From NCBI RefSeq assembly GCF_002205845.1, contig NZ_NISI01000006.1:62001-126000 (forward strand): a stretch of 64,000 bases of DNA, read 5' to 3'. The DNA is from Roseateles puraquae. GTDB taxonomy: Bacteria; Pseudomonadota; Gammaproteobacteria; Burkholderiales; Burkholderiaceae_C. The notes below the pieces were generated by a model, which was not told the origin of the DNA, did no database searches, and worked only from the letters and a program-made list of their open reading frames with translations. The translations under genes and the position numbers were made by a program. Shown here in pieces: positions 22,450-32,990 of this stretch; the stretch's first letter is position 1, and each line of letters opens with the position of its first letter.

Positions 22450-23328
22450 ATGAAGTGGGAAGGCCAGCGCGAGAGCGAAAACGTTGAGGATGCCCGCGGC
22501 AGTGGGGGTGGCGGCGGACGCGGCCTGCCCATCGGTGGGCGCGGCATCGGCCTGGGCGGCATCGTCATCGCGTTGCTCGCGTCGTGGGTGCTGGGCGTGA
22601 ATCCGCTGACGGTGCTGGGCTTGCTGAGTGGCGACGGGGGCGGCGTGGCGCCGGTGCAGGCGCCTGCGGGCGACTCCCATGCGCAGGACCCGGGCTACCG
22701 CTTCGTGAAGACCGTGCTGGCCGACACCGAAGACGTCTGGACCGCCTACTTCCAGCGCAGCGGCCAGGCCTACCCCATGCCCAAGCTGCGCGTGTTCCGC
22801 GGCAGCGAGCCGACCGCCTGCGGCCAGGGCGAGGCCGCCATGGGCCCGTTCTACTGCCCGGCCGACCGCAAGGTCTACATCGACCTGAGTTTCTACGACA
22901 CCCTGCGCCAGCGGCTCGGGGCGCCCGGCGACTTCGCGCAGGCCTACGTCATCGCCCACGAGGTGGGCCACCACCTGCAGAACCTGATGGGCACCACCGC
23001 CAACCTGGACGAGGCGCGCCGGCGGGTGTCCGAGCGCGAGATGAACGCGCTGAGCGTGCGGCTGGAGCTGCAGGCGGACTGCTTCGCCGGCGTCTGGGCG
23101 CAGCTGTCGCAGCGCAGCAAGGGCTGGCTGGAGCAGGGGGACATCGAAGAGGCGCTGAATGCCGCCGCGCAGATCGGCGACGACACCCTGCAGCGCCGCG
23201 CCCGCGGCACGGTGGTGCCCGAGAGCTTCACCCACGGCAGCAGCGCGCAGCGGGTGCGGTGGTTCAAGCGCGGGTTGGAGGCGGGCGACTTGAAGGCCTG
23301 CAATACCTTCGGCGCTGAAGCGCTCTGA
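22450..23328 (+). CDS. Neutral zinc metallopeptidase family protein (YpfJ-like)
   Basis: 292 residues. A glycine-rich N-terminus (GGGGGRGLPIGGRG) precedes one transmembrane helix (residues 34-50), then a catalytic domain with HEVGHH at 170-175 and the downstream LELQADCFAGVWA, where the aspartate or glutamate is the third zinc ligand. CGQGEAAMGPFYCPADRKVYIDLSF is a family hallmark. Anchored in the inner membrane with the domain outside. Ribosome site AGGAG precedes the ATG. Single gene. Confidence 0.9.
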   Translation: MKWEGQRESENVEDARGSGGGGGRGLPIGGRGIGLGGIVIALLASWVLGVNPLTVLGLLSGDGGGVAPVQAPAGDSHAQDPGYRFVKTVLADTEDVWTAYFQRSGQAYPMPKLRVFRGSEPTACGQGEAAMGPFYCPADRKVYIDLSFYDTLRQRLGAPGDFAQAYVIAHEVGHHLQNLMGTTANLDEARRRVSEREMNALSVRLELQADCFAGVWAQLSQRSKGWLEQGDIEEALNAAAQIGDDTLQRRARGTVVPESFTHGSSAQRVRWFKRGLEAGDLKACNTFGAEAL

Positions 23329-23349: not shown

Positions 23350-24468
23350 TCAGTGGGTCGCGGCAGCCGCGCTGTCGGCGGCACTCGCCCGGCGCCGCAT
23401 CCAGGCCTTGCGCAGAAGATGCCGGATCAGCAGCCCGGTCGGCATGCGAAGCGCGTGCGACCGCACATAGATGCGCTGCCGAGCCCAGGCGGCGCGCACG
23501 CTTGTGGCGCCGGTAGCCGGCTCCAGCAAGGCTGCCTCGTAAACCGGCAACCAGCGCTGCCAGGCCCAATCGGGCGACGCGGAGGCCGACAACGCAGCCA
23601 GTGTTGCGTTGGGCACGTCAGTGCCGAAAAGGTGCACCAGCAGGCGCAAACCCAGCGACACCGGCCCCGCAAGGTCGTTGCCCGCCGCCACGGATTCCAA
23701 CCGCGCCCAGAAGTCCTCGGCGGCCGCGAACAGACCTACCATCCGGTGGGCATCGTGGAGATCGCGCAAGCCGTTGTGCAATTCCCCCTCGTGCATCAAG
23801 TGGGTCAGGCAATGGACCAGCAGGTCCTCCGGACAGGGCAGCCGCAAGGCCGGCAAACCGGGCAAGGGCCGTGAGCGGTCCAGAATAGCCTGAGCATTCG
23901 GTGCATTGCGCGCGGTGAGCGGCAAGATGTTGTGGTGCACGTCCAGCACCGTGCCCCGGCGCAAGTGGCTCATGGGCGGTAGTTCGTGCATCCACTGCCG
24001 GTAGTAGCGCTGGTCGTAGGGATCGGTCTTGGCACTGACCCAGCCGTGCAACATGAGGCGACTCTCGACATCGGCGAGCGCCGCCTTGGGCACCAGGATG
24101 TCGATGTCGCCAAACAGCCGGCCTGCGCCAATCTCGGGAAAGCCCATGACGTAGGCACTGCCCTTGAGCAGCAGCACCGGCACCTCCAGCACGCCCAGGG
24201 CAGCCTGCAACTGATGCGCCTCCCATCGGATCGACAGATGCTGGCGCTCGCCCATGGCATAAATGCCATCCAGGTGCAACTGCGCTTGGGGGTCGGCGCG
24301 CAAGCCGGCTTCCCGTAAGCGGGTGGTCAGCGCGCCCAGCAGGTTGGCTTCGCGCGCGGTGCTCACCAGCACCGACCAGGCCCGCGGGTCGAGCGCACTC
24401 GTGCGCGCCGGATCACGCAAGGTAAGCAGCAGCTCGCGGCGGGCTTTTGTGCGGCCAGGATCCGTCAT
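23350..24468 (-). CDS. Nucleotidyltransferase-fold protein of the HPr-rel-A type cluster
   Basis: 372 residues, NTP_transf_5 type. The nucleotidyltransferase core is visible as LLLKGSAYVMGF (98-110) and RLFGDIDILVP (117-127) with the metal aspartates Asp121 and Asp123. The rest is helical, with HHNILPLT and LLVHCLTHLMHEGE as expected for this family. It is the last gene of a coupled minus-strand operon; its ATG overlaps the HprK-related stop (ATGA). Proteins of this type recur beside HprK-related kinases; which substrate is nucleotidylated is not known. Confidence 0.85.
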   Translation of the reverse strand: MTDPGRTKARRELLLTLRDPARTSALDPRAWSVLVSTAREANLLGALTTRLREAGLRADPQAQLHLDGIYAMGERQHLSIRWEAHQLQAALGVLEVPVLLLKGSAYVMGFPEIGAGRLFGDIDILVPKAALADVESRLMLHGWVSAKTDPYDQRYYRQWMHELPPMSHLRRGTVLDVHHNILPLTARNAPNAQAILDRSRPLPGLPALRLPCPEDLLVHCLTHLMHEGELHNGLRDLHDAHRMVGLFAAAEDFWARLESVAAGNDLAGPVSLGLRLLVHLFGTDVPNATLAALSASASPDWAWQRWLPVYEAALLEPATGATSVRAAWARQRIYVRSHALRMPTGLLIRHLLRKAWMRRRASAADSAAAATH

Positions 24469-25334
24469 GATGCACAGATCTGCCGCACGCCCGCGATACC
24501 GTCCTGCGTTGAGCCGTACACGAGCTCATAGCAAGCGACCCCGTCGAACATCGCGCACAAGGCTTCGAATCCGGGAGCGCCCATGCGCTCGCCGTTGAAC
24601 GACTGTTCGGAGATCAACGTGAAAGCCTCCACCCGGCTCAGCGGCTCGACCTGGAGCGAGGCCCCAGCCTCGAACCTCGGGAACACCACCCAGGCCGCAC
24701 GCGCCCGCTCACTCGCCCGCAACTGAGACTCGAGCGGGCTCGCCGCGTGGGTCACCGTGCCCTTGCGCGTGTCGCGGTAGATCGGCCCGAGACGAGCACC
24801 GGGGAAAGCGGACACGACGTTGATCGAGGCGTTCTTCAGACTGATCGGCCGCGGATGCGGCACGAGCAGGCCGTCCACGGGGTCAAGCACCGTCAACTCG
24901 TCTGAGAGCAAGCGCCATCCCTCCAGGAAGGCCAGGGACGCGCACAGCGTGCTCTTGCCCGCGCCCGGAAAGCCCGGCATGACGATGGCAGCCCCGTCAC
25001 GCGCCAGCACCGCGCCGTGCATGACCAGCCAGCCCAGCGGACGTTGCGCGACGCACCAGTTCATGCCCCATTCGAACATCGGCGCTGCCTGCGCCGCCGG
25101 CAAGGGAAAGAAGGGCTCGACCCCGTCCAGCAGAAAGCGCGCCTGGGGCCGCCAAAAGCGCCGCACACCGCGGCCAGGCAGGATCTGGAGGTCGAAGTCG
25201 ACGAAGCACGCCTCGCCCACCGCACGCTGCGCCTGCGGATAGAAGGTCTGGATGTGCTGACGCACGGCCGCGAAAGGAGACCGCAACCGAACGTTGAAAG
25301 GGGGAATGTGAAGAGTGGCTTCGAACACCGTCAC
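24465..25334 (-). CDS. HprK-related kinase A
   Basis: 289 residues with a GTG start overlapping the PqqD-like stop (GTGA). P-loop GFPGAGKST at 121-129, preceded by WLVMHGAVLARDGAAIVMPG, and followed by LLSDELTVLD (Asp145-Glu146), the same layout as the HPr kinase/phosphorylase catalytic core but without the HprK N-terminal domain or the full signature loop. It probably phosphorylates a protein or small molecule other than HPr. Translational coupling on both sides indicates one functional unit with the PqqD-like and nucleotidyltransferase proteins. Confidence 0.88.
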   Translation of the reverse strand: MTVFEATLHIPPFNVRLRSPFAAVRQHIQTFYPQAQRAVGEACFVDFDLQILPGRGVRRFWRPQARFLLDGVEPFFPLPAAQAAPMFEWGMNWCVAQRPLGWLVMHGAVLARDGAAIVMPGFPGAGKSTLCASLAFLEGWRLLSDELTVLDPVDGLLVPHPRPISLKNASINVVSAFPGARLGPIYRDTRKGTVTHAASPLESQLRASERARAAWVVFPRFEAGASLQVEPLSRVEAFTLISEQSFNGERMGAPGFEALCAMFDGVACYELVYGSTQDGIAGVRQICAS

Positions 25335-25660
25335 TCGGGGGCAGGCGGAGCGACAGGTTGTATCACCCCGGCCTCAAGCAGCTGCGCCAGGGCAGCCTGC
25401 AGCTCATGGCCGGATGGCGCCGGGACGCCTGGTGCGTCGTTCACGCCAAGCGGCGCGGGTGAGGCGCCGGACTGGCGCCGCAGCAGTCGCGAGACGATGC
25501 GTTGGCCCAGGGCGTCGAGGACCCAATAGTCCCCTGAACAATCGTCGAAAGCCAGCCGATCCGAGCTTTCTTGCCAGTCCGGGCCCAGCCGAAGCTGTCG
25601 ACCCGCACGGATGGTCCACGCCGCCAGGAGGGCAGCGTCCCCATCCGTCACTGCTTGCAT
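25331..25660 (-). CDS. PqqD-family peptide chaperone of the HPr-rel-A type cluster
   Basis: 109 residues. Resembles PqqD-like winged-helix chaperones that hold the leader of a precursor peptide for its modifying enzyme: WVLDALGQRIVSRLL in the middle and HELQAALAQLLEAGVIQPV at the end match the second half of the fold. ATG at 25660 lies 13 bases inside the end of the upstream gene. By analogy with RiPP pathways, its presence implies a peptide substrate in this locus; none is named in the known gene set. Confidence 0.8.
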   Translation of the reverse strand: MQAVTDGDAALLAAWTIRAGRQLRLGPDWQESSDRLAFDDCSGDYWVLDALGQRIVSRLLRRQSGASPAPLGVNDAPGVPAPSGHELQAALAQLLEAGVIQPVAPPAPE

Positions 25661-26397
25661 AGATTGTCGACTGCCGCGTTGTCGTCGTACATGCCGCTGA
25701 TATAGGCGATCACCTCAGCCGGGCTCCAGGGCTTGCTGCACTTCATCGAGCCCGGGCAATACATGCCCGTTTTGCTCAGCTGCGTCCACATGTCGACGAC
25801 CTGCGCCTTCGTCATGGGGTAGCGGGTGGAGTTGCTGGTGAAGTAGCCCGCGTTCAGCCACGCGGCGGTCAGGTGGCGAAGCAGTTGCCCGGAGCCCGCG
25901 GCGCCGCCAAAGATGGCGTCGTTCGGCGCATTGAGGACCCACCACAGACTGACGCTGCCTTGGTACTGCGTCTTGCAGGTCCAGCCCGGGAACACGCTTT
26001 GCAGGCTGGTGCCCTGGTTGGTGATGTCGGTGAAAACCACCTTCTGGAGGGCGGTCGTGCAGGTCACGATGTTGCCGTTGACCTGCGGAAAGGTCGCGCC
26101 AGCGGGCGCCCAGTACGGCGAGTGCTGCGGCTGAACCCAGAAACCCGGGGAGCGACCGCCGGAACACACCGTGCTCGAGGCCGGACGGGGGCTGGTGTTG
26201 CCGCTCATGATGGCCGACGGGCTGCGGCAGACACCCCCGCCCAGCGCCGACTTGGCGCTGACCGCCAGCAACACCCCGGCGCCACCGCCGGCGCCTCGGA
26301 ACAACCGGCGGCGGGCCAGGTTCACGCCCGGGGCGATGGCCGATTGCGGCTCGCCGTGCAGCGCTCCCTGTTCACTGTCGAACCGATTGTTATCCAT
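25648..26397 (-). CDS. Exported cysteine-rich SPGFW-domain protein, candidate cluster substrate or partner
   Basis: 249 residues from the ATG at 26397. The N-terminus is Tat-like (ARRRLFRGAGG followed by a hydrophobic GVLLAVSAKSAL stretch at about 39-62). The mature part has seven cysteines (CRS, TVCSG, VTCTT, WTCKT, MYCPGSMKC, NLCKQ at the very end) and the phrase SPGFWVQPQHSPYW, reminiscent of the SPG(F/Y)W / QGYWKNH exported domain, followed by LRHLTAAWLNAGYF and YPMTKAQVVDMW, which fit the later parts of that domain. It overlaps the PqqD-like start by 13 bases, so it is part of the same operon. Function unknown. Confidence 0.72.
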   Translation of the reverse strand: MDNNRFDSEQGALHGEPQSAIAPGVNLARRRLFRGAGGGAGVLLAVSAKSALGGGVCRSPSAIMSGNTSPRPASSTVCSGGRSPGFWVQPQHSPYWAPAGATFPQVNGNIVTCTTALQKVVFTDITNQGTSLQSVFPGWTCKTQYQGSVSLWWVLNAPNDAIFGGAAGSGQLLRHLTAAWLNAGYFTSNSTRYPMTKAQVVDMWTQLSKTGMYCPGSMKCSKPWSPAEVIAYISGMYDDNAAVDNLCKQ

Positions 26398-26592
26398 TGA
26401 GTTCCCCTGGGTGCCGAAGGTGTGCAAGCCGCAGGCTCGCCTCTAAATTATCGCGTGGCCTCTCAGCGACGCCTCCCCCCGAATCAGGGTGAGGGCACCG
26501 ACAACCGTGTCACGAAGTCCGCAATCCCGCGAGGGCGGCGAGCCCCCCAGATGCCTGGGCTGTCACCGCAGCTGGCGTGACCCCGCTGCGCG

Positions 26593-26820
26593 TCAGGCGG
26601 TCCGGCGCGACAGCCAGCTCAACGGCGATTCCTGGGTCGCGTGCCCCGACCCCGACTGGGATTCGAGAAAGTCGCTCGGCGGCTGGCTGCGGTACTCGCT
26701 GATGCCGCCGCCATCCAGGCAGGCATCCAGACCGAAGGCGGTACCGAGGTCGGCCGGGTCGGGCTGTTGGCGTGTTGCGACGTCACGGCGGAACAGACGC
26801 AGTGAAGGAACGAATCGCAT
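26593..26820 (-). CDS. 75-residue peptide, candidate precursor for the HPr-rel-A cluster
   Basis: Starts MRFVPSLRLFRRD at an ATG with a GAGG ribosome site seven bases upstream (26828-26831). A basic, amphipathic N-terminus is followed by the compact core ADLGTAFGLDACLDGGG (residues 23-39), one cysteine, then a polar serine/glutamine-rich tail ending LSWLSRRTA. It lies 195 bp upstream of, and in the same direction as, the exported protein, PqqD-like, kinase and nucleotidyltransferase genes. Size, composition and position are what a leader-core precursor handled by a PqqD-type chaperone would look like. I do not recognise it from any family; the role is inference. Confidence 0.55.
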   Translation of the reverse strand: MRFVPSLRLFRRDVATRQQPDPADLGTAFGLDACLDGGGISEYRSQPPSDFLESQSGSGHATQESPLSWLSRRTA

Positions 26821-27115: not shown

Positions 27116-27277
27116 ATGAGTTCAAACCTGTTGACCTGGCTCGCCGCCGGCCTGATTGCCGTCGTGCTGGCCAGTACGTTGTGGATGGCCCATGCCATCC
27201 GTCCCGAGCAAGGCAGTTCCGCCGTGATGGTGGCCCAGGCACCTGCGGCCGCGGCTTCCGCCCCTGCGCGCCCCTGA
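27116..27277 (+). CDS. Small single-pass membrane protein, unknown
   Basis: 53 residues: MSSNLLTW, a hydrophobic helix LAAGLIAVVLASTLWMAHA (about 9-27), then an alanine/proline-rich tail ending SAPARP. No good ribosome site precedes the ATG, and no family is recognised. Its stop abuts the stop of argP on the other strand with no intervening base. Kept because the frame has a clear membrane-protein composition. Confidence 0.4.
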   Translation: MSSNLLTWLAAGLIAVVLASTLWMAHAIRPEQGSSAVMVAQAPAAAASAPARP

Positions 27278-28183
27278 TCAGGCCAGCGCCAGGCGAGCCC
27301 CCTGCGCCAGCGCCTGGCCGATGCGGTCGAGCAGGGCATCTCGCCCTTGCAACTGCCATTGGTGCCAGTACAGCGCCACGTCCACGCTGACCTCGGGCTG
27401 CAGCACCAACAAGTCGCCGCTCGCCACCCAGGGGCGGATCTGGATCTCGGGCGCCACGCCGACGCCCCACCCCATGACCGCAGCGCGCACGTAAGCCTCG
27501 CTCGACGGCACGAAACGCTCGCGCAAGCGGGGTGAGCGCACACCGAAGGCCTGTGACACCCACTGCGCCTGCGTGTCGTCCTTGCGGTTGAAGACCAGGA
27601 ACGGGGTGTCGGCAAAGCTGCCGGCATGCAGCCCCTGCGGCAACTGGGTCGCCAGGAAGCGCGGGCTGGCCACGGCCACATAGCGCATCACGCCCAGCGG
27701 CTGCACGCGGCAGCCCTGCAGCGCCTCGGCCACCGTCGAGACACACCCCAGCACGGCGCCCTGGCGCAGGCTGTCATGGGTGAAGTCCTGGTCGTCGACG
27801 ACCAGTTCCAGACCGTAGCCCTCCTGCAGGCCCTGCTGCACCAGGCCATCCAGCGCCGGCAGCACCCAGGTGGCGAGGCTGTCCGCGTTGACCGCGATGG
27901 CCAGCCGTGACTGGGGCGCCACGCGCTCACCCAGTTCCCGCGCCACATCGACCCGCAGTGCCTGCAACTGCCGGGCAAACCGCAGCAGCACCTTGCCCGC
28001 CTCCGTCAGTCGCAGCGGCCGGGAACGCACCACGAGCGGCTGGCCCACCTGCGCTTCCAGGGCCCGCAGCCGCTGGGACACCGCGCTTTGCGTGATCGCC
28101 AAGCGCTGCGCCGCGCGCTCGAAGCCGAGCTCGTCAGCCAGGGCGGCCAGGCATTCCAGGGCTGCAGGATCGAACTCATTCAT
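27278..28183 (-). CDS. argP: LysR-family regulator of amino-acid export (ArgP/LysG type)
   Basis: 301 residues from the ATG at 28183. N-terminal HTH MNEFDPAALECLAALADEL with the recognition helix ITQSAVSQRLRALE, typical of ArgP/IciA/LysG. In relatives it senses arginine or lysine and activates the divergently read exporter gene. Here the exporter starts 73 bp away on the other strand, the classical argP/argO arrangement, so local activation is expected. The effector domain contains TATWVLPAL-like and VDDQDFTHDSLRQG segments. Confidence 0.92.
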   Translation of the reverse strand: MNEFDPAALECLAALADELGFERAAQRLAITQSAVSQRLRALEAQVGQPLVVRSRPLRLTEAGKVLLRFARQLQALRVDVARELGERVAPQSRLAIAVNADSLATWVLPALDGLVQQGLQEGYGLELVVDDQDFTHDSLRQGAVLGCVSTVAEALQGCRVQPLGVMRYVAVASPRFLATQLPQGLHAGSFADTPFLVFNRKDDTQAQWVSQAFGVRSPRLRERFVPSSEAYVRAAVMGWGVGVAPEIQIRPWVASGDLLVLQPEVSVDVALYWHQWQLQGRDALLDRIGQALAQGARLALA

Positions 28184-30203: not shown

Positions 30204-32990
30204 TCAGAGCGACTTGAGCATCTCCTGCACCTGCGCCTGCTGCGGGAGCTTCGGGCCCAGCTTGGCCAGACCCTCCAGCTCCTGCTTGGCACCGGCCTTG
30301 TCGCCTGACTTCAACAAGATCTCCGCCAGGTTGAAGCGGTAGGCCGGCTGGTCCGGCAGATCGCTGACGAGCTGCCGCTGCTGGCTCACGGCCTTGGCGT
30401 AGTCCTTCTCGTTGGCCAGCACGGTGGCGTAGGTGTCGCGCAGCGGTGCGTAGTCGGGCTTGAGCTTCAGGCCGCGCTCCGCCAGCTCCCGGGCTCCTGC
30501 CTGACCGAACTTGCTGCGCAGCCAGGCCACGTTGTTGATCACGGGCAGCGCATCGGGGCTGCGCTTGAGCAGGGCCTCGTAGCGCGCGAGGGCCGGCTCC
30601 AGTTCGCCGCGCGACAGCAGCACATCGGCGGCTGCGCTCTCGAAAGTCACGTCCTGCGGGTGCGCGGCACGCCATTGCTTCTCGAACGCCAGCGCCTCGT
30701 CGCGCTTCTTGGCCGCCAGCAGCAGCGTGAACAGCCGCGCCGGCGCATCACCCGGGTCGTTCAGGGTCACGGCCTTGCGCAGCAGCGCAGCCGCGGGCTC
30801 GGGGCGATTGCGCCCGACCTCGATCTCGGCCTCGGCGATCAGCGCGAACGCCTCCTGCGGGAACTTCTTCTGGCGCTCGCGCAAGGCGGCCAAGGCTTCA
30901 TCCACCCGCCCCTGGCGCGCCGCCAGCTGGATCACCAGCCGCTGGGCCGCCACGGATGACGGCTCAGCCTCCAGCGCGCGCTTGACCTCGCGCTCGGCGC
31001 CGGCGTAGTCCTTGTCCAGGTAACGCAGCTGGCCCAGGCCCAGCCAGCCTGAGGCGCGCGTGGGAGCGAGCACGGTGAGCTGGGTGTAGGTCTTGGCGGC
31101 CTGCGCCCGGTCGCCCGAGGCGATCTGGGTGCGCGCCAGCCGCTCGATGACGTCGGCGTTCTGAGGCATGGCCGCTGACGCCTCCTGGGCCGCCTGCGCC
31201 GCCTTGGCCGCGTTGCCCATGCGCAGGTAGTGATCGACCAGGGCCAGGCGCAAGGTCGCGTCGGTCGGCTCCTCGTTGACGCCGGTGGTCAGCACTTCGG
31301 TCACCCGTTCGACCGGTGCGCGGTTCTGCACCAGCAGCTCCGCCAGCGCCAGGCGCGCGGTCGCCGAATGCTTCTGGCTGGCCACGAAAGCCTCCAGCCG
31401 CTTGATGGCCCCATCGGCCCGGCCCGCCTGGATGTCCAGGGCCACCAGGCCCAGCACGGCGGGCAGGTAGCCGGCATCGGTCTTGACGGCGGCGTCGAAG
31501 GCGGCCTGGGCGGCTGCGTTGTCCTTGCGCGCGAGCTGGATGCGACCGCGCAGGCCATCCGGCACCGGACTGCCCTGCATCTTGGGCGCCAGCTTGTCGA
31601 TCGCGGCCAGCGCGGCCGGCAGGTCGTTGCGCCGCAGAAGCGCATTGATCAGCATCAGGTCGTAGTTGTTGCCACTGTCCTTGGCCGCAAGCTCGCGCAA
31701 CTGGGCAATGGCCGCATCGGCCTTGGCGCGGCTGGCACCCCCCGGCGCGCTGCTGTCGCGCACGATGGCCGACAGCGCCAGCGCCGCGGCCGTCTTGGGG
31801 TCGTCCGGGCGCAGCTTGGCGGCCGCCCCGAAGGCCTGGTCCGCCGCCTCGAAATTGCCCTGCATCAGCTGCGCCTTGCCGGCCAGCAGCAGGGTCTCGG
31901 CGTCGGCCTTGCCCGACTCCAGCAGCGGGCGCACCGTCTCCAGCGTCTTGCCCGGCGAACGGCGCTGCAGTTGCAGCGCGGCGTACTGGCGACGCAGGGC
32001 CGGATCATCCGGCGCCAGCTTGAGCGCCTGATTCAGCAGGTTCTCGGCCTCCGCCATCTCACCCAGCTGCTGATGCGCCCCCGACGCCACGCGCAGCAGC
32101 GGCAGGAAGTTGGGCATCTGCTTGAGCAGCGGCAGCGCCAGGTCGCGCGCCTTGGCCGGCTCGTTGCGCGCCAGCGCATCCTGCGCCTGCAGGAAGCGCC
32201 CTTGAGGCTTCTTGGCCAGCGCGGGCGGCATGTCGGCCACCAGCTTGCTGGCCACGTCGAGCTTCTGCTGGCCCAGGGCGATGCGAATCAGCAGCGAACG
32301 GGCGTCATAGACGTTGGGGTCCAGCACCAGCACGTTCTCCAGCAAGGGGCGCGCGTCCTCCACCTTGCCGCGTGACAGCAGCACCTCGGCCTTGAGCTGC
32401 AGGGCCTTGGGCGACTTGGGGTTCTTCAGCAACAGCTCGTCGAGCTGGGCCAGCGCCTCGTCGCCGGCGTTGCCGGCCCACTTGACCCGCGCCGACACGA
32501 GCACCGCCTCTTCAGACTCCGGCTGCAGCTGCAGCGCACGGCCCGCGCAGGCCTTGGCGTCCACCAGGTTGCCCTGAGTCAGGTGCGCCACGGCCAGGTG
32601 GCGCTGAAGCGTCGCCATCGCCACAGGATCCGCCAGGGACTCGTCATGGAACTCACCGATCAGCTTGCGCGCCTGGCCGGAGTTCAACATCGCCTCAGCC
32701 AGCGGCGGCACCACCTCGTCCCGCGGCGCGCCAAGCTCCCAGCCCCGGCGCAGCTCGATCTCCGCGCCCGACATGTCGCCCGCCTCCAGCAAGGCCTTGC
32801 CGAGCAGATAGCGGGCCTGGGCGTTGTCGGGCGATTGCTGCAGCAGGTTCTTCAGCTCGATCGCGGCACCGGCCGAGTCCTTCTGCGCCATGCGCTTCTG
32901 CGCCGAAGCCAGCAAGTCCTGCTCGGAGCGTTGACCGCAGGCCGTGAGGGCGGCGAGCATGATGAGGGTGAGAACACGGCGCGATTTCAT
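30204..32990 (-). CDS. prsT: PEP-CTERM system TPR-repeat lipoprotein PrsT
   Basis: 928 residues. Signal peptide with lipobox LTAC (MKSRRVLTLIMLAALTAC), then TPR repeats over the whole length, beginning LASAQKRMAQKDSAGAAIELKNLLQQSPDNAQARYLLG, the characteristic PrsT N-terminus. In other bacteria PrsT is encoded with exosortase XrtA, PrsK and PrsR, where it helps export or assemble exopolysaccharide and PEP-CTERM proteins. No exosortase or polysaccharide gene is near it here. Converges with dadA; divergent from the Hsp70-like gene 81 bp upstream. Confidence 0.9.
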   Translation of the reverse strand: MKSRRVLTLIMLAALTACGQRSEQDLLASAQKRMAQKDSAGAAIELKNLLQQSPDNAQARYLLGKALLEAGDMSGAEIELRRGWELGAPRDEVVPPLAEAMLNSGQARKLIGEFHDESLADPVAMATLQRHLAVAHLTQGNLVDAKACAGRALQLQPESEEAVLVSARVKWAGNAGDEALAQLDELLLKNPKSPKALQLKAEVLLSRGKVEDARPLLENVLVLDPNVYDARSLLIRIALGQQKLDVASKLVADMPPALAKKPQGRFLQAQDALARNEPAKARDLALPLLKQMPNFLPLLRVASGAHQQLGEMAEAENLLNQALKLAPDDPALRRQYAALQLQRRSPGKTLETVRPLLESGKADAETLLLAGKAQLMQGNFEAADQAFGAAAKLRPDDPKTAAALALSAIVRDSSAPGGASRAKADAAIAQLRELAAKDSGNNYDLMLINALLRRNDLPAALAAIDKLAPKMQGSPVPDGLRGRIQLARKDNAAAQAAFDAAVKTDAGYLPAVLGLVALDIQAGRADGAIKRLEAFVASQKHSATARLALAELLVQNRAPVERVTEVLTTGVNEEPTDATLRLALVDHYLRMGNAAKAAQAAQEASAAMPQNADVIERLARTQIASGDRAQAAKTYTQLTVLAPTRASGWLGLGQLRYLDKDYAGAEREVKRALEAEPSSVAAQRLVIQLAARQGRVDEALAALRERQKKFPQEAFALIAEAEIEVGRNRPEPAAALLRKAVTLNDPGDAPARLFTLLLAAKKRDEALAFEKQWRAAHPQDVTFESAAADVLLSRGELEPALARYEALLKRSPDALPVINNVAWLRSKFGQAGARELAERGLKLKPDYAPLRDTYATVLANEKDYAKAVSQQRQLVSDLPDQPAYRFNLAEILLKSGDKAGAKQELEGLAKLGPKLPQQAQVQEMLKSL

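What the first reader, a model, noticed from the sequence alone, without database searches (positions are those of the whole stretch)
23350..26820. HPr-rel-A type operon with an unrecognised candidate substrate peptide
An HprK-related kinase, a PqqD-like chaperone and a nucleotidyltransferase are translationally coupled (GTGA and ATGA overlaps). PqqD homologues normally hold a precursor peptide, yet no substrate is established for this gene set. Just upstream, in the same direction, lies a 75-residue gene with a good ribosome site, a basic leader-like N-terminus and the compact core ADLGTAFGLDACLDGGG. The parts (chaperone, kinase, nucleotidyltransferase, small peptide, exported cysteine-rich protein) could make a peptide-modifying pathway using phosphorylation or nucleotidylation instead of radical-SAM chemistry.
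Basis: partly seen in the sequence, partly recalled or inferred. Interest (0 to 1): 0.8.

Follow-up and report, generated by a model that had tools for sequence, protein, structure and literature searches.

The report
Swappable four-gene exported-protein modification cassette
A kinase, a peptide-holding chaperone and a nucleotidyltransferase nearly always come with a fourth gene for an exported, highly variable protein, which is probably what they modify; the small 75-residue gene singled out at first looks like a conserved neighbour only.

Summary
The 75-residue frame is a real gene (median pN/pS 0.24) but very unlikely the substrate: it is near 18 of 97 kinase loci, all in one genus, and upstream in the same direction in 5. 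Outside the genus it is unlinked, and on a tree it does not follow the kinase. The recurring partner is the "exported cysteine-rich protein" (25648-26397), whose gene overlaps pqqD. Its family is found at 91 of 97 kinase loci by HMM, 94 with three by eye, and in 48 of 49 kinase-positive but 0 of 151 kinase-negative family genomes; the 49th has one by eye. It has a recognisable twin-arginine leader and a variable body, and within the genus the cassette genes are exchanged together at one address. Best reading: the chaperone holds the leader, kinase and nucleotidyltransferase modify the protein, Tat exports it. No chemistry was shown.

The parts
25648..26397 (-). exported variable protein (called ExpCys here), 249 aa: the likely substrate; no Pfam or NCBIfam model found
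   Evidence: family HMM finds it at 91 of 97 kinase loci, 94 with three by eye; 48 of 49 kinase-positive vs 0 of 151 kinase-negative genomes; no significant Pfam/NCBIfam match for 25 members
26236..26313 (-). leader of ExpCys: twin-arginine signal-like stretch, residues about 29-54 (ends set by eye)
   Evidence: R29 R30 invariant in 25 aligned members, all from the window's family; leader-only HMM
26203..26229 (-). post-signal motif C57..S65, proposed acceptor region (inference)
   Evidence: C57 and S65 conserved in at least 90% of 25 members
25331..25660 (-). PqqD-like RRE protein, 109 aa
   Evidence: TIGR04353 below cut-off; family profile hits TfuB1 at E 1.7e-7; model pLDDT 76, best Foldseek hits TbiB1/TfuB1
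24465..25334 (-). HprK-related kinase A, 289 aa, GTG start
   Evidence: TIGR04352, 354.4 bits; P-loop G124/G126/K127/S128/T129 and H106, D145, E146, K167, K191 conserved in 92-97 of 97
23350..24468 (-). nucleotidyltransferase-like protein, 372 aa
   Evidence: PF14907, 160 bits; K102, G103, R117, D121, D123 identical in 94 of 94
26593..26820 (-). 75-residue conserved small gene: flank, not part of the exchanged cassette
22450..23328 (+). left flank: KPN_02809/YpfJ-like zinc metallopeptidase
   Evidence: NF050010, PF04228; near the cassette also in G013 and G007
27278..28180 (-). right flank: argP/lysG regulator
   Evidence: NF002964; beside the 75-residue gene also in G013 and G007

Best explanation
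The window holds an HPr-rel-A cassette of four overlapping genes, not three: an exported variable protein, its RRE-like PqqD chaperone, an HprK-related kinase and a PF14907 nucleotidyltransferase. Inferred mechanism: the PqqD-like protein binds the twin-arginine leader of the new protein and presents it to the kinase, which phosphorylates a Ser/Thr (perhaps in the conserved stretch just after the signal); the NTase then adds a nucleotide or sugar to the phosphate. The modified protein is exported by Tat and the leader is removed by signal peptidase. Shown: the genes, their linkage, co-occurrence, joint exchange, and the conserved-leader/variable-body design. Inferred: binding, both chemical steps, the site, Tat dependence. 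Unknown: the role of the product; the exchange of cassettes at one address suggests selection for diversity at the cell surface or outside the cell.
For: Fourth gene at 91 of 97 kinase loci by HMM, plus L206, L237, L238 by eye. Of 85 ExpCys-PqqD gene pairs placed by script, 14 overlap, 54 are 0-60 nt apart and 14 are 61-150 nt apart. Same 200 genomes: 48 of 49 kinase-positive and 0 of 151 kinase-negative have a strong family hit; taking one place per genome, 46 of the 48 lie 325-509 nt from the kinase match and two (G069, G175) about 1.2 kb off on its downstream side; the 49th (G011) has one by eye directly upstream of pqqD. A 32-residue leader-only HMM gives 38 hits at E<1e-4 in 200 genomes: 35 at such genes (33 of the 49 kinase-positive genomes; 14 of the 33 supplied training rows, 19 did not), 2 beside divergent HprK-like kinases under the TIGR cut-off, 1 elsewhere. 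Leader identity exceeds shuffled (0.36 vs 0.21) while the body barely does (0.23 vs 0.21) in the 368 of 700 sampled pairs whose kinases are 35-45% identical. ExpCys bodies, kinases and PqqDs fall into the same five classes in 19 genus loci while flank proteins have medians of 73-91% identity; on a tree of six flank proteins of 18 genomes the class needs 8 changes. RRE resemblance. Chemical precedent: PadeK, PsmK, PsmN, LppK.
Against: No chemistry, binding or export was tested. The window's own leader lacks the [Y/W]xxPx motif of lasso/LPP leaders, and its PqqD scores under the TIGR04353 cut-off. The first homology search was iterated and could drift toward generic Tat signals, so the genome-wide controls carry the claim; one search also gave weak hits (E 1.7e-4 to 9.3e-4) in 5 kinase-negative genomes, and the leader model missed 16 of 49 kinase-positive genomes at E<1e-4. 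The partial Mantel test ties PqqD to the leader (r 0.34) no more than to the body (0.34). The GFWKN..LNA body domain also occurs inside a large repeat protein (L249, G052) away from the cassette, so that domain does not always need these enzymes. Three of 97 kinase loci show no such gene (L225, L232, L242). Cassette classes are still somewhat clustered on the flank tree (8 changes, shuffled mean 10.3).
Confidence: 0.62

Rival explanations
1. The 75-residue gene is the substrate peptide.
For: Near the kinase in 19 of 20 genus genomes, under purifying selection, and all 28 family genomes with a match at E<1e-3 are kinase-positive (of 8 weaker matches at E 0.0017-0.0094, 7 are in kinase-negative genomes).
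Against: Near 18 of 97 loci; two orientations; unlinked outside the genus; stays with the flank (median identity 0.82) while the cassette is exchanged. Its co-distribution fits one clade: 1 change against 4 for the kinase, and it follows in 0 of 2 independent pairs (too few pairs for a sign test, and 30 of the 200 genomes).
Confidence: 0.03
2. The exported protein is a partner, not the substrate: for example a periplasmic sensor or effector whose production is coupled to enzymes that modify another protein or a glycan.
For: Only linkage and design are shown.
Against: An RRE-like chaperone coupled to a protein with a conserved leader and a variable body is the usual substrate arrangement; in the window no other gene lies inside the exchanged block.
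Confidence: 0.22
3. The cassette is a competition or phage-related locus (toxin, decoy or surface identity marker) and the modification is secondary.
For: Cassette exchange at a fixed address in one genus, 8 class changes on the flank tree.
Against: No immunity gene seen in the window's block; no PADLOC match for 7 proteins at E<=0.01. Not exclusive with the best explanation.
Confidence: 0.12

Closest known systems
HPr-rel-A system (NCBIfam TIGR04352 kinase, TIGR04353 PqqD-related chaperone)
   Same: Same kinase family over cut-off, same kind of chaperone, NTase next door.
   Different: The model names seen here name no substrate (the models' own notes were not seen), and 25 + 10 fourth-gene proteins matched no NCBIfam or Pfam family over its cut-off; in two plasmid records the gene is annotated 'hypothetical protein'. 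The window's chaperone is under the TIGR04353 cut-off.
Linear polyphosphorylated peptides, LPP (PMC13381572, passages read)
   Same: Discrete RRE, HprK-like kinase, NTP transferase, precursors (35-200 aa) with conserved N-terminal region and variable C-terminal part; LppK phosphorylates Ser3 just after the leader.
   Different: LPP: Bacillota genomes, own signal-peptidase-like LppS and MsbA-like exporter, YxxPxV leader. Here: Pseudomonadota, twin-arginine leader, no peptidase or exporter in the window's block, bodies of about 85-238 aa.
Paeninodin / pseudomycoidin lasso peptides (PMC9266682, passages read)
   Same: Kinase acting on a C-terminal Ser of the precursor; PsmN-dependent hexose on the phosphorylated Ser; discrete B1 protein.
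   Different: No lasso cyclase or B2 protease in the window's block.
DUF2063-type RREs with DUF2282 precursors (PMC12710340, one passage read)
   Same: An RRE paired with precursors that carry an export signal.
   Different: Sec signal there, twin-arginine here.

Membership tests
HPr-rel-A system (NCBIfam) | HprK_rel_A kinase over the TIGR04352 cut-off | tested here: met
   354.4 vs 200 bits
HPr-rel-A system (NCBIfam) | PqqD_rel_X over the TIGR04353 cut-off | tested here: not met
   15.9 vs 35 bits for the window's own protein; best hit all the same, and 23 of 24 members of A2 match at E<=0.1
HPr-rel-A system (NCBIfam) | PF14907-type NTase beside the kinase (feature taken from the neighbourhoods here, not from the model notes) | tested here: met
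   160 vs 31.2 bits; found near 94 of 97 kinases
RRE domain | PqqD/lasso-B1-like fold | tested here: met
   model pLDDT 76.2; best Foldseek hits 5v1v and 6jx3, E 0.0099 and 0.026, prob 0.99, TM (target) 0.57-0.59, none at E<=0.001; profile hit to TfuB1 at 1.7e-7, though the same search gave partial hits to designed helical proteins at 2.4e-5 and 1.6e-4. Moderate strength
LPP / lasso type RRE pathway | [Y/W]xxPx[L/V/I..] leader motif | tested here: not met
   Absent from the window's leader; present as YVAPAI in the short relatives L254, L255, L256
LPP | LppS-like peptidase and MsbA-like exporter in the cluster | tested here: not met
   The window's block holds four genes between its flanks
LPP / paeninodin | Ser phosphorylation of the precursor by the kinase | not testable with these tools
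   needs mass spectrometry
Lasso peptide | macrolactam cyclase and B2 protease in the cluster | tested here: not met
   not among the four genes of the window's block; the other loci were not searched for them
Tat substrate | twin-arginine motif before an uncharged stretch | tested here: met
   89 of 92 by pattern, the other 3 by eye
Tat substrate | TatC-dependent export | not testable with these tools
   needs an export assay

The most novel reading that the evidence does not exclude
HPr-rel-A systems are a widespread class of phosphorylated (and further nucleotidylated or glycosylated) exported proteins in which the twin-arginine signal doubles as the RRE leader, so that modification is checked before Tat export; in at least one genus the four genes form allelic cassettes that are exchanged together, either way round, at one chromosomal address, as expected for an outward-facing product under diversifying selection.
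Probability: 0.4. Interest if true: 0.88.

Novelty: new variant of a known kind. Interest (0 to 1): 0.72.

Why it matters
The NCBIfam names for the kinase and chaperone of this system name no substrate. A gene that accompanies the kinase in 49 of 49 kinase-positive genomes of the sample (48 by HMM, one by eye), with a leader that can be recognised on its own, makes the substrate question directly testable. It would extend the phospho-peptide chemistry described for lasso and LPP peptides (passages) to larger, probably Tat-exported proteins of Pseudomonadota, and suggest that an RRE can act as a checkpoint before export. The exchange of cassettes within one genus gives a handle on function.

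Tried and rejected
The 75-residue peptide as substrate: rejected (see above). Its co-distribution with the kinase was first taken as possible support, then tested on a TrpC+TrpD tree of the 30 genomes whose TrpC loci were returned, not of all 200, and found to fit a single clade.

Structure of the exported protein: model of mean pLDDT 47.7, not searched. PDB search with its profile: one hit at E 0.08, to thiocyanate dehydrogenase, query positions 14-46, not significant. Kinase and NTase against PDB by single sequence: best E 0.15 and 0.51, no meaningful hit. PADLOC: nothing for 7 proteins. Promoter/terminator scan: no more than in shuffles. Partial Mantel test: p 0.001 but not specific to the leader. 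P-x-[VILM] in the leader: 42 of 91, without a background, so not used as evidence. Plasmids: 9 records matched the kinase, 3 were opened. The Methylobacterium one has the kinase match inside a gene annotated as a PqqD family chaperone, and the one hypothetical gene read there has no such leader; it was not counted.

Paper searches: 'HPr-rel-A' and 'HprK-related kinase A' gave no paper in the held open-access library; most subscription papers are not held, so this is no proof that the substrate is unpublished. Papers seen as passages only: PMC13381572, PMC9266682, PMC7533575, PMC12710340 (one passage); PMC7470986 was searched with no match. All else was search listings.
Full report
What is there. 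On the - strand lie, in order of transcription, an exported protein (26397-25648), a PqqD-like protein (25660-25331), an HprK-related kinase (25334-24465) and a PF14907 nucleotidyltransferase (24468-23350); each gene overlaps the next, by 13, 4 and 4 bases. The kinase is a clear HprK_rel_A (354.4 bits, cut-off 200), the NTase a clear PF14907 (160 bits). The PqqD-like protein is a diverged member: 15.9 bits against TIGR04353 (cut-off 35), but 23 of the 24 members of alignment A2 match that model at E<=0.1. The family profile finds the lasso RRE TfuB1 in the PDB at E 1.7e-7, next to partial hits to designed helical proteins at 2.4e-5 and weaker, and its model (pLDDT 76) has the lasso RREs TbiB1 and TfuB1 as best fold hits (E 0.0099 and 0.026, prob 0.99, none under 0.001). 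The 17 named close loci are Roseateles and Pelomonas genomes and MAGs under other labels.

The 75-residue gene. It is genuine: 18 orthologues, median pN/pS 0.24 over 153 pairs, present in all 20 genus genomes. But it behaves as backbone. In the genus the order is alkP, PAS, DUF2807, zinc peptidase, [cassette], 75-residue gene, small ORF, argP, lysE, dadA, prsT, with some of these missing in some loci. In the five class B loci (window and four others) the cassette points the same way as the small gene; in the 13 class A loci it points the other way, so the small gene is convergent with it. In G013 and G007 the cassette lies near the zinc peptidase and DUF2807, and the small gene beside argP, about 170 and 220 kb away. 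Of 25 genomes outside the genus with a match at E<1e-3, 11 have it on the same contig as a cassette, 63 kb to 2.9 Mb away, and 14 on another contig. Of 101 loci laid out, four were dropped (L088: kinase cut by a contig end; L095, L111, L113: fetched around the small gene, no kinase), leaving 97 with a kinase, the window among them; not every kinase hit was fetched. Of the 97, 18 have the small gene nearby, all in the genus.

On a TrpC+TrpD tree of 30 of these genomes the small gene has one change (a clade with support 100/99) against four for the kinase, and in the two independent kinase contrasts the small gene did not follow. So clade membership explains it well enough; two pairs are too few for a sign test.

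The real fourth gene. Iterated HMMs find relatives of the exported protein at 91 of 97 kinase loci, PqqD at 89 and the NTase at 94. By eye, L206, L237 and L238 have the same kind of gene, leaving L225, L232 and L242 without one. Of 85 ExpCys-PqqD gene pairs placed by script (start codons chosen by rule), 14 overlap, 54 are 0-60 nt apart, 14 are 61-150 nt apart, one further copy in L107 is 818 nt away, and in L197 and L202 the gene is far downstream; in L215 both genes lie downstream of the kinase. Because iterated HMMs can drift, I tested an alignment of 25 members on the same 200 genomes as the kinase: 48 of 49 kinase-positive genomes and 0 of 151 kinase-negative have a strong hit (E<1e-8, hits inside very large frames set aside; Fisher p 1e-45, which ignores relatedness). 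Five kinase-negative genomes have weak hits at E 1.7e-4 to 9.3e-4. With one place per genome, 46 of the 48 lie 325-509 nt from the kinase match, room for one PqqD; two (G069, G175) lie about 1.2 kb off on the downstream side. The 49th genome, G011, whose only HMM hits were in a very large frame, has a gene of this kind by eye directly upstream of a PqqD-like frame.

Design of the protein. A short polar N-terminus, a twin arginine (invariant in 25 aligned members of the window's family), an uncharged stretch with a frequent TLxSRPVxA-like end, then Cys and Ser (C57 and S65 in at least 90%) and a variable body. In the 368 of 700 sampled pairs whose kinases are 35-45% identical, the leader keeps 36% identity against 21% shuffled, the body 23% against 21%. 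Bodies fall into several kinds by eye: a GFWKN..LNA type as in the window, short types ending in SCWxS or TCFASLQ, and in L206 a Ser-rich tail. No Pfam or NCBIfam model matched 25 plus 10 members over its cut-off. Two named plasmid records, Sphingomonas parapaucimobilis and Vibrio alfacsensis, have such a gene upstream of the kinase, annotated 'hypothetical protein'.

Is the leader just a Tat signal? A leader-only model of 32 segments gave 38 hits at E<1e-4 in the 200 genomes: 35 are cassette genes, in 33 of the 49 kinase-positive genomes (14 of the 33 supplied training rows, 19 did not, some of the latter being of a training genome's genus); two sit beside HprK-like kinases that fall below the TIGR cut-off; one is elsewhere (G108, model positions 1-19 only). 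At E<=1, 194 of 200 genomes have matches, as expected for twin-arginine signals. The two below-cut-off loci (L254, L255) hold short precursors (63 and 74 aa) with SRRxFVKxGxYVAPAILTLAAAPxFAKAGS: inside the signal lies YVAPAI, which fits the [Y/W]xxPx[L/V/I..] RRE motif quoted for lasso and PQQ leaders, and their PqqD proteins match a lasso PqqD model at E 4e-12 and 2e-12, under its cut-off. A third such gene (L256) had no kinase within the 9 kb read. The window's own leader lacks this motif.

Exchange of cassettes. Among 19 genus loci the flank proteins have median identities of 73-91% (the small gene 82%), while kinase, NTase, PqqD and the body of the exported protein have medians of 45, 44, 29 and 28%. 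With thresholds of 0.6, 0.45 and 0.40 chosen by me, kinase, PqqD and body fall into the same five classes (5, 5, 5, 3 and 1 loci); the NTase was not classed. On a tree of six flank proteins for the 18 genomes of the four larger classes, the class needs 8 changes (shuffled mean 10.3, as low in 7 of 200); L087 and L090, neighbours with support 100/100, bear different classes, and the window and L092 (class B) group with L085 and L089 (class A3) at 100/100. A quick kinase tree puts class B with two loci from outside the genus (nearest L245 of G195), and the class A loci do not form one group. Class B lies in the opposite orientation to class A. In class B and in L079, L085, L086 and L093 there is no room for a further gene between the cassette and the small gene; in the other class A loci 0.6-0.74 kb beside the NTase match was not examined.

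How it most likely works. Precedents: PadeK and ThcoK phosphorylate a C-terminal Ser, PsmN is needed for hexose on the phosphorylated Ser (PMC9266682); LppK puts several phosphates on Ser3 just after the leader, with RRE LppB in the cluster (PMC13381572). The kinase here keeps its P-loop, H106, D145, E146, K167 and K191 in 92-97 of 97, the NTase its K102-G103, R117, D121 and D123 in 94 of 94. I infer that the PqqD-like protein holds the twin-arginine leader, the kinase phosphorylates the protein, the NTase extends the phosphate, and Tat exports the product. The site after the signal is a guess from conservation and the LPP precedent.

Limits. Nothing biochemical was shown. The co-occurrence sample is one family of genomes as grouped by the tool; wider loci (order and phylum) were examined by neighbourhood only. 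The literature search covers an open-access library only.

Noticed in passing
window 27116-27277 (+): Small 53-residue frame with one hydrophobic stretch between the 75-residue gene and argP; tblastn finds it at the same place in many genus loci (42-78% identity).
   Followed up: no
window 26593-26820 (-): The 75-residue gene is a conserved, constrained, clade-specific small gene, beside argP where read; its own function is unknown.
   Followed up: partly
L254 4064-5573, L255 1395-3058, L256 4361-4636: Short precursors (63-84 aa) whose twin-arginine signal contains YVAPAI, next to divergent HprK-like kinases and lasso-like PqqD proteins (L254, L255); a possible bridge between lasso/LPP and HPr-rel-A systems. 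L256 has no kinase nearby.
   Followed up: partly
L253 (G000 C12, about 937-945 kb): A second HprK-like gene in the window's genome lies between a radical-SAM/B12-like frame and a frame with NTase-like KGSA..DVDLLV motifs (families by eye).
   Followed up: no
L249 2-3889: The GFWKN..LNA domain of the window's exported protein recurs twice inside a large repeat protein of G052 that looks like a surface protein.
   Followed up: no
L206, upstream of PqqD: Fourth gene with a twin-arginine leader followed by GN repeats and a very Ser-rich tail.
   Followed up: no
window 30204-32990 (-): XrtA/PEP-CTERM system protein PrsT lies in the same conserved neighbourhood.
   Followed up: no
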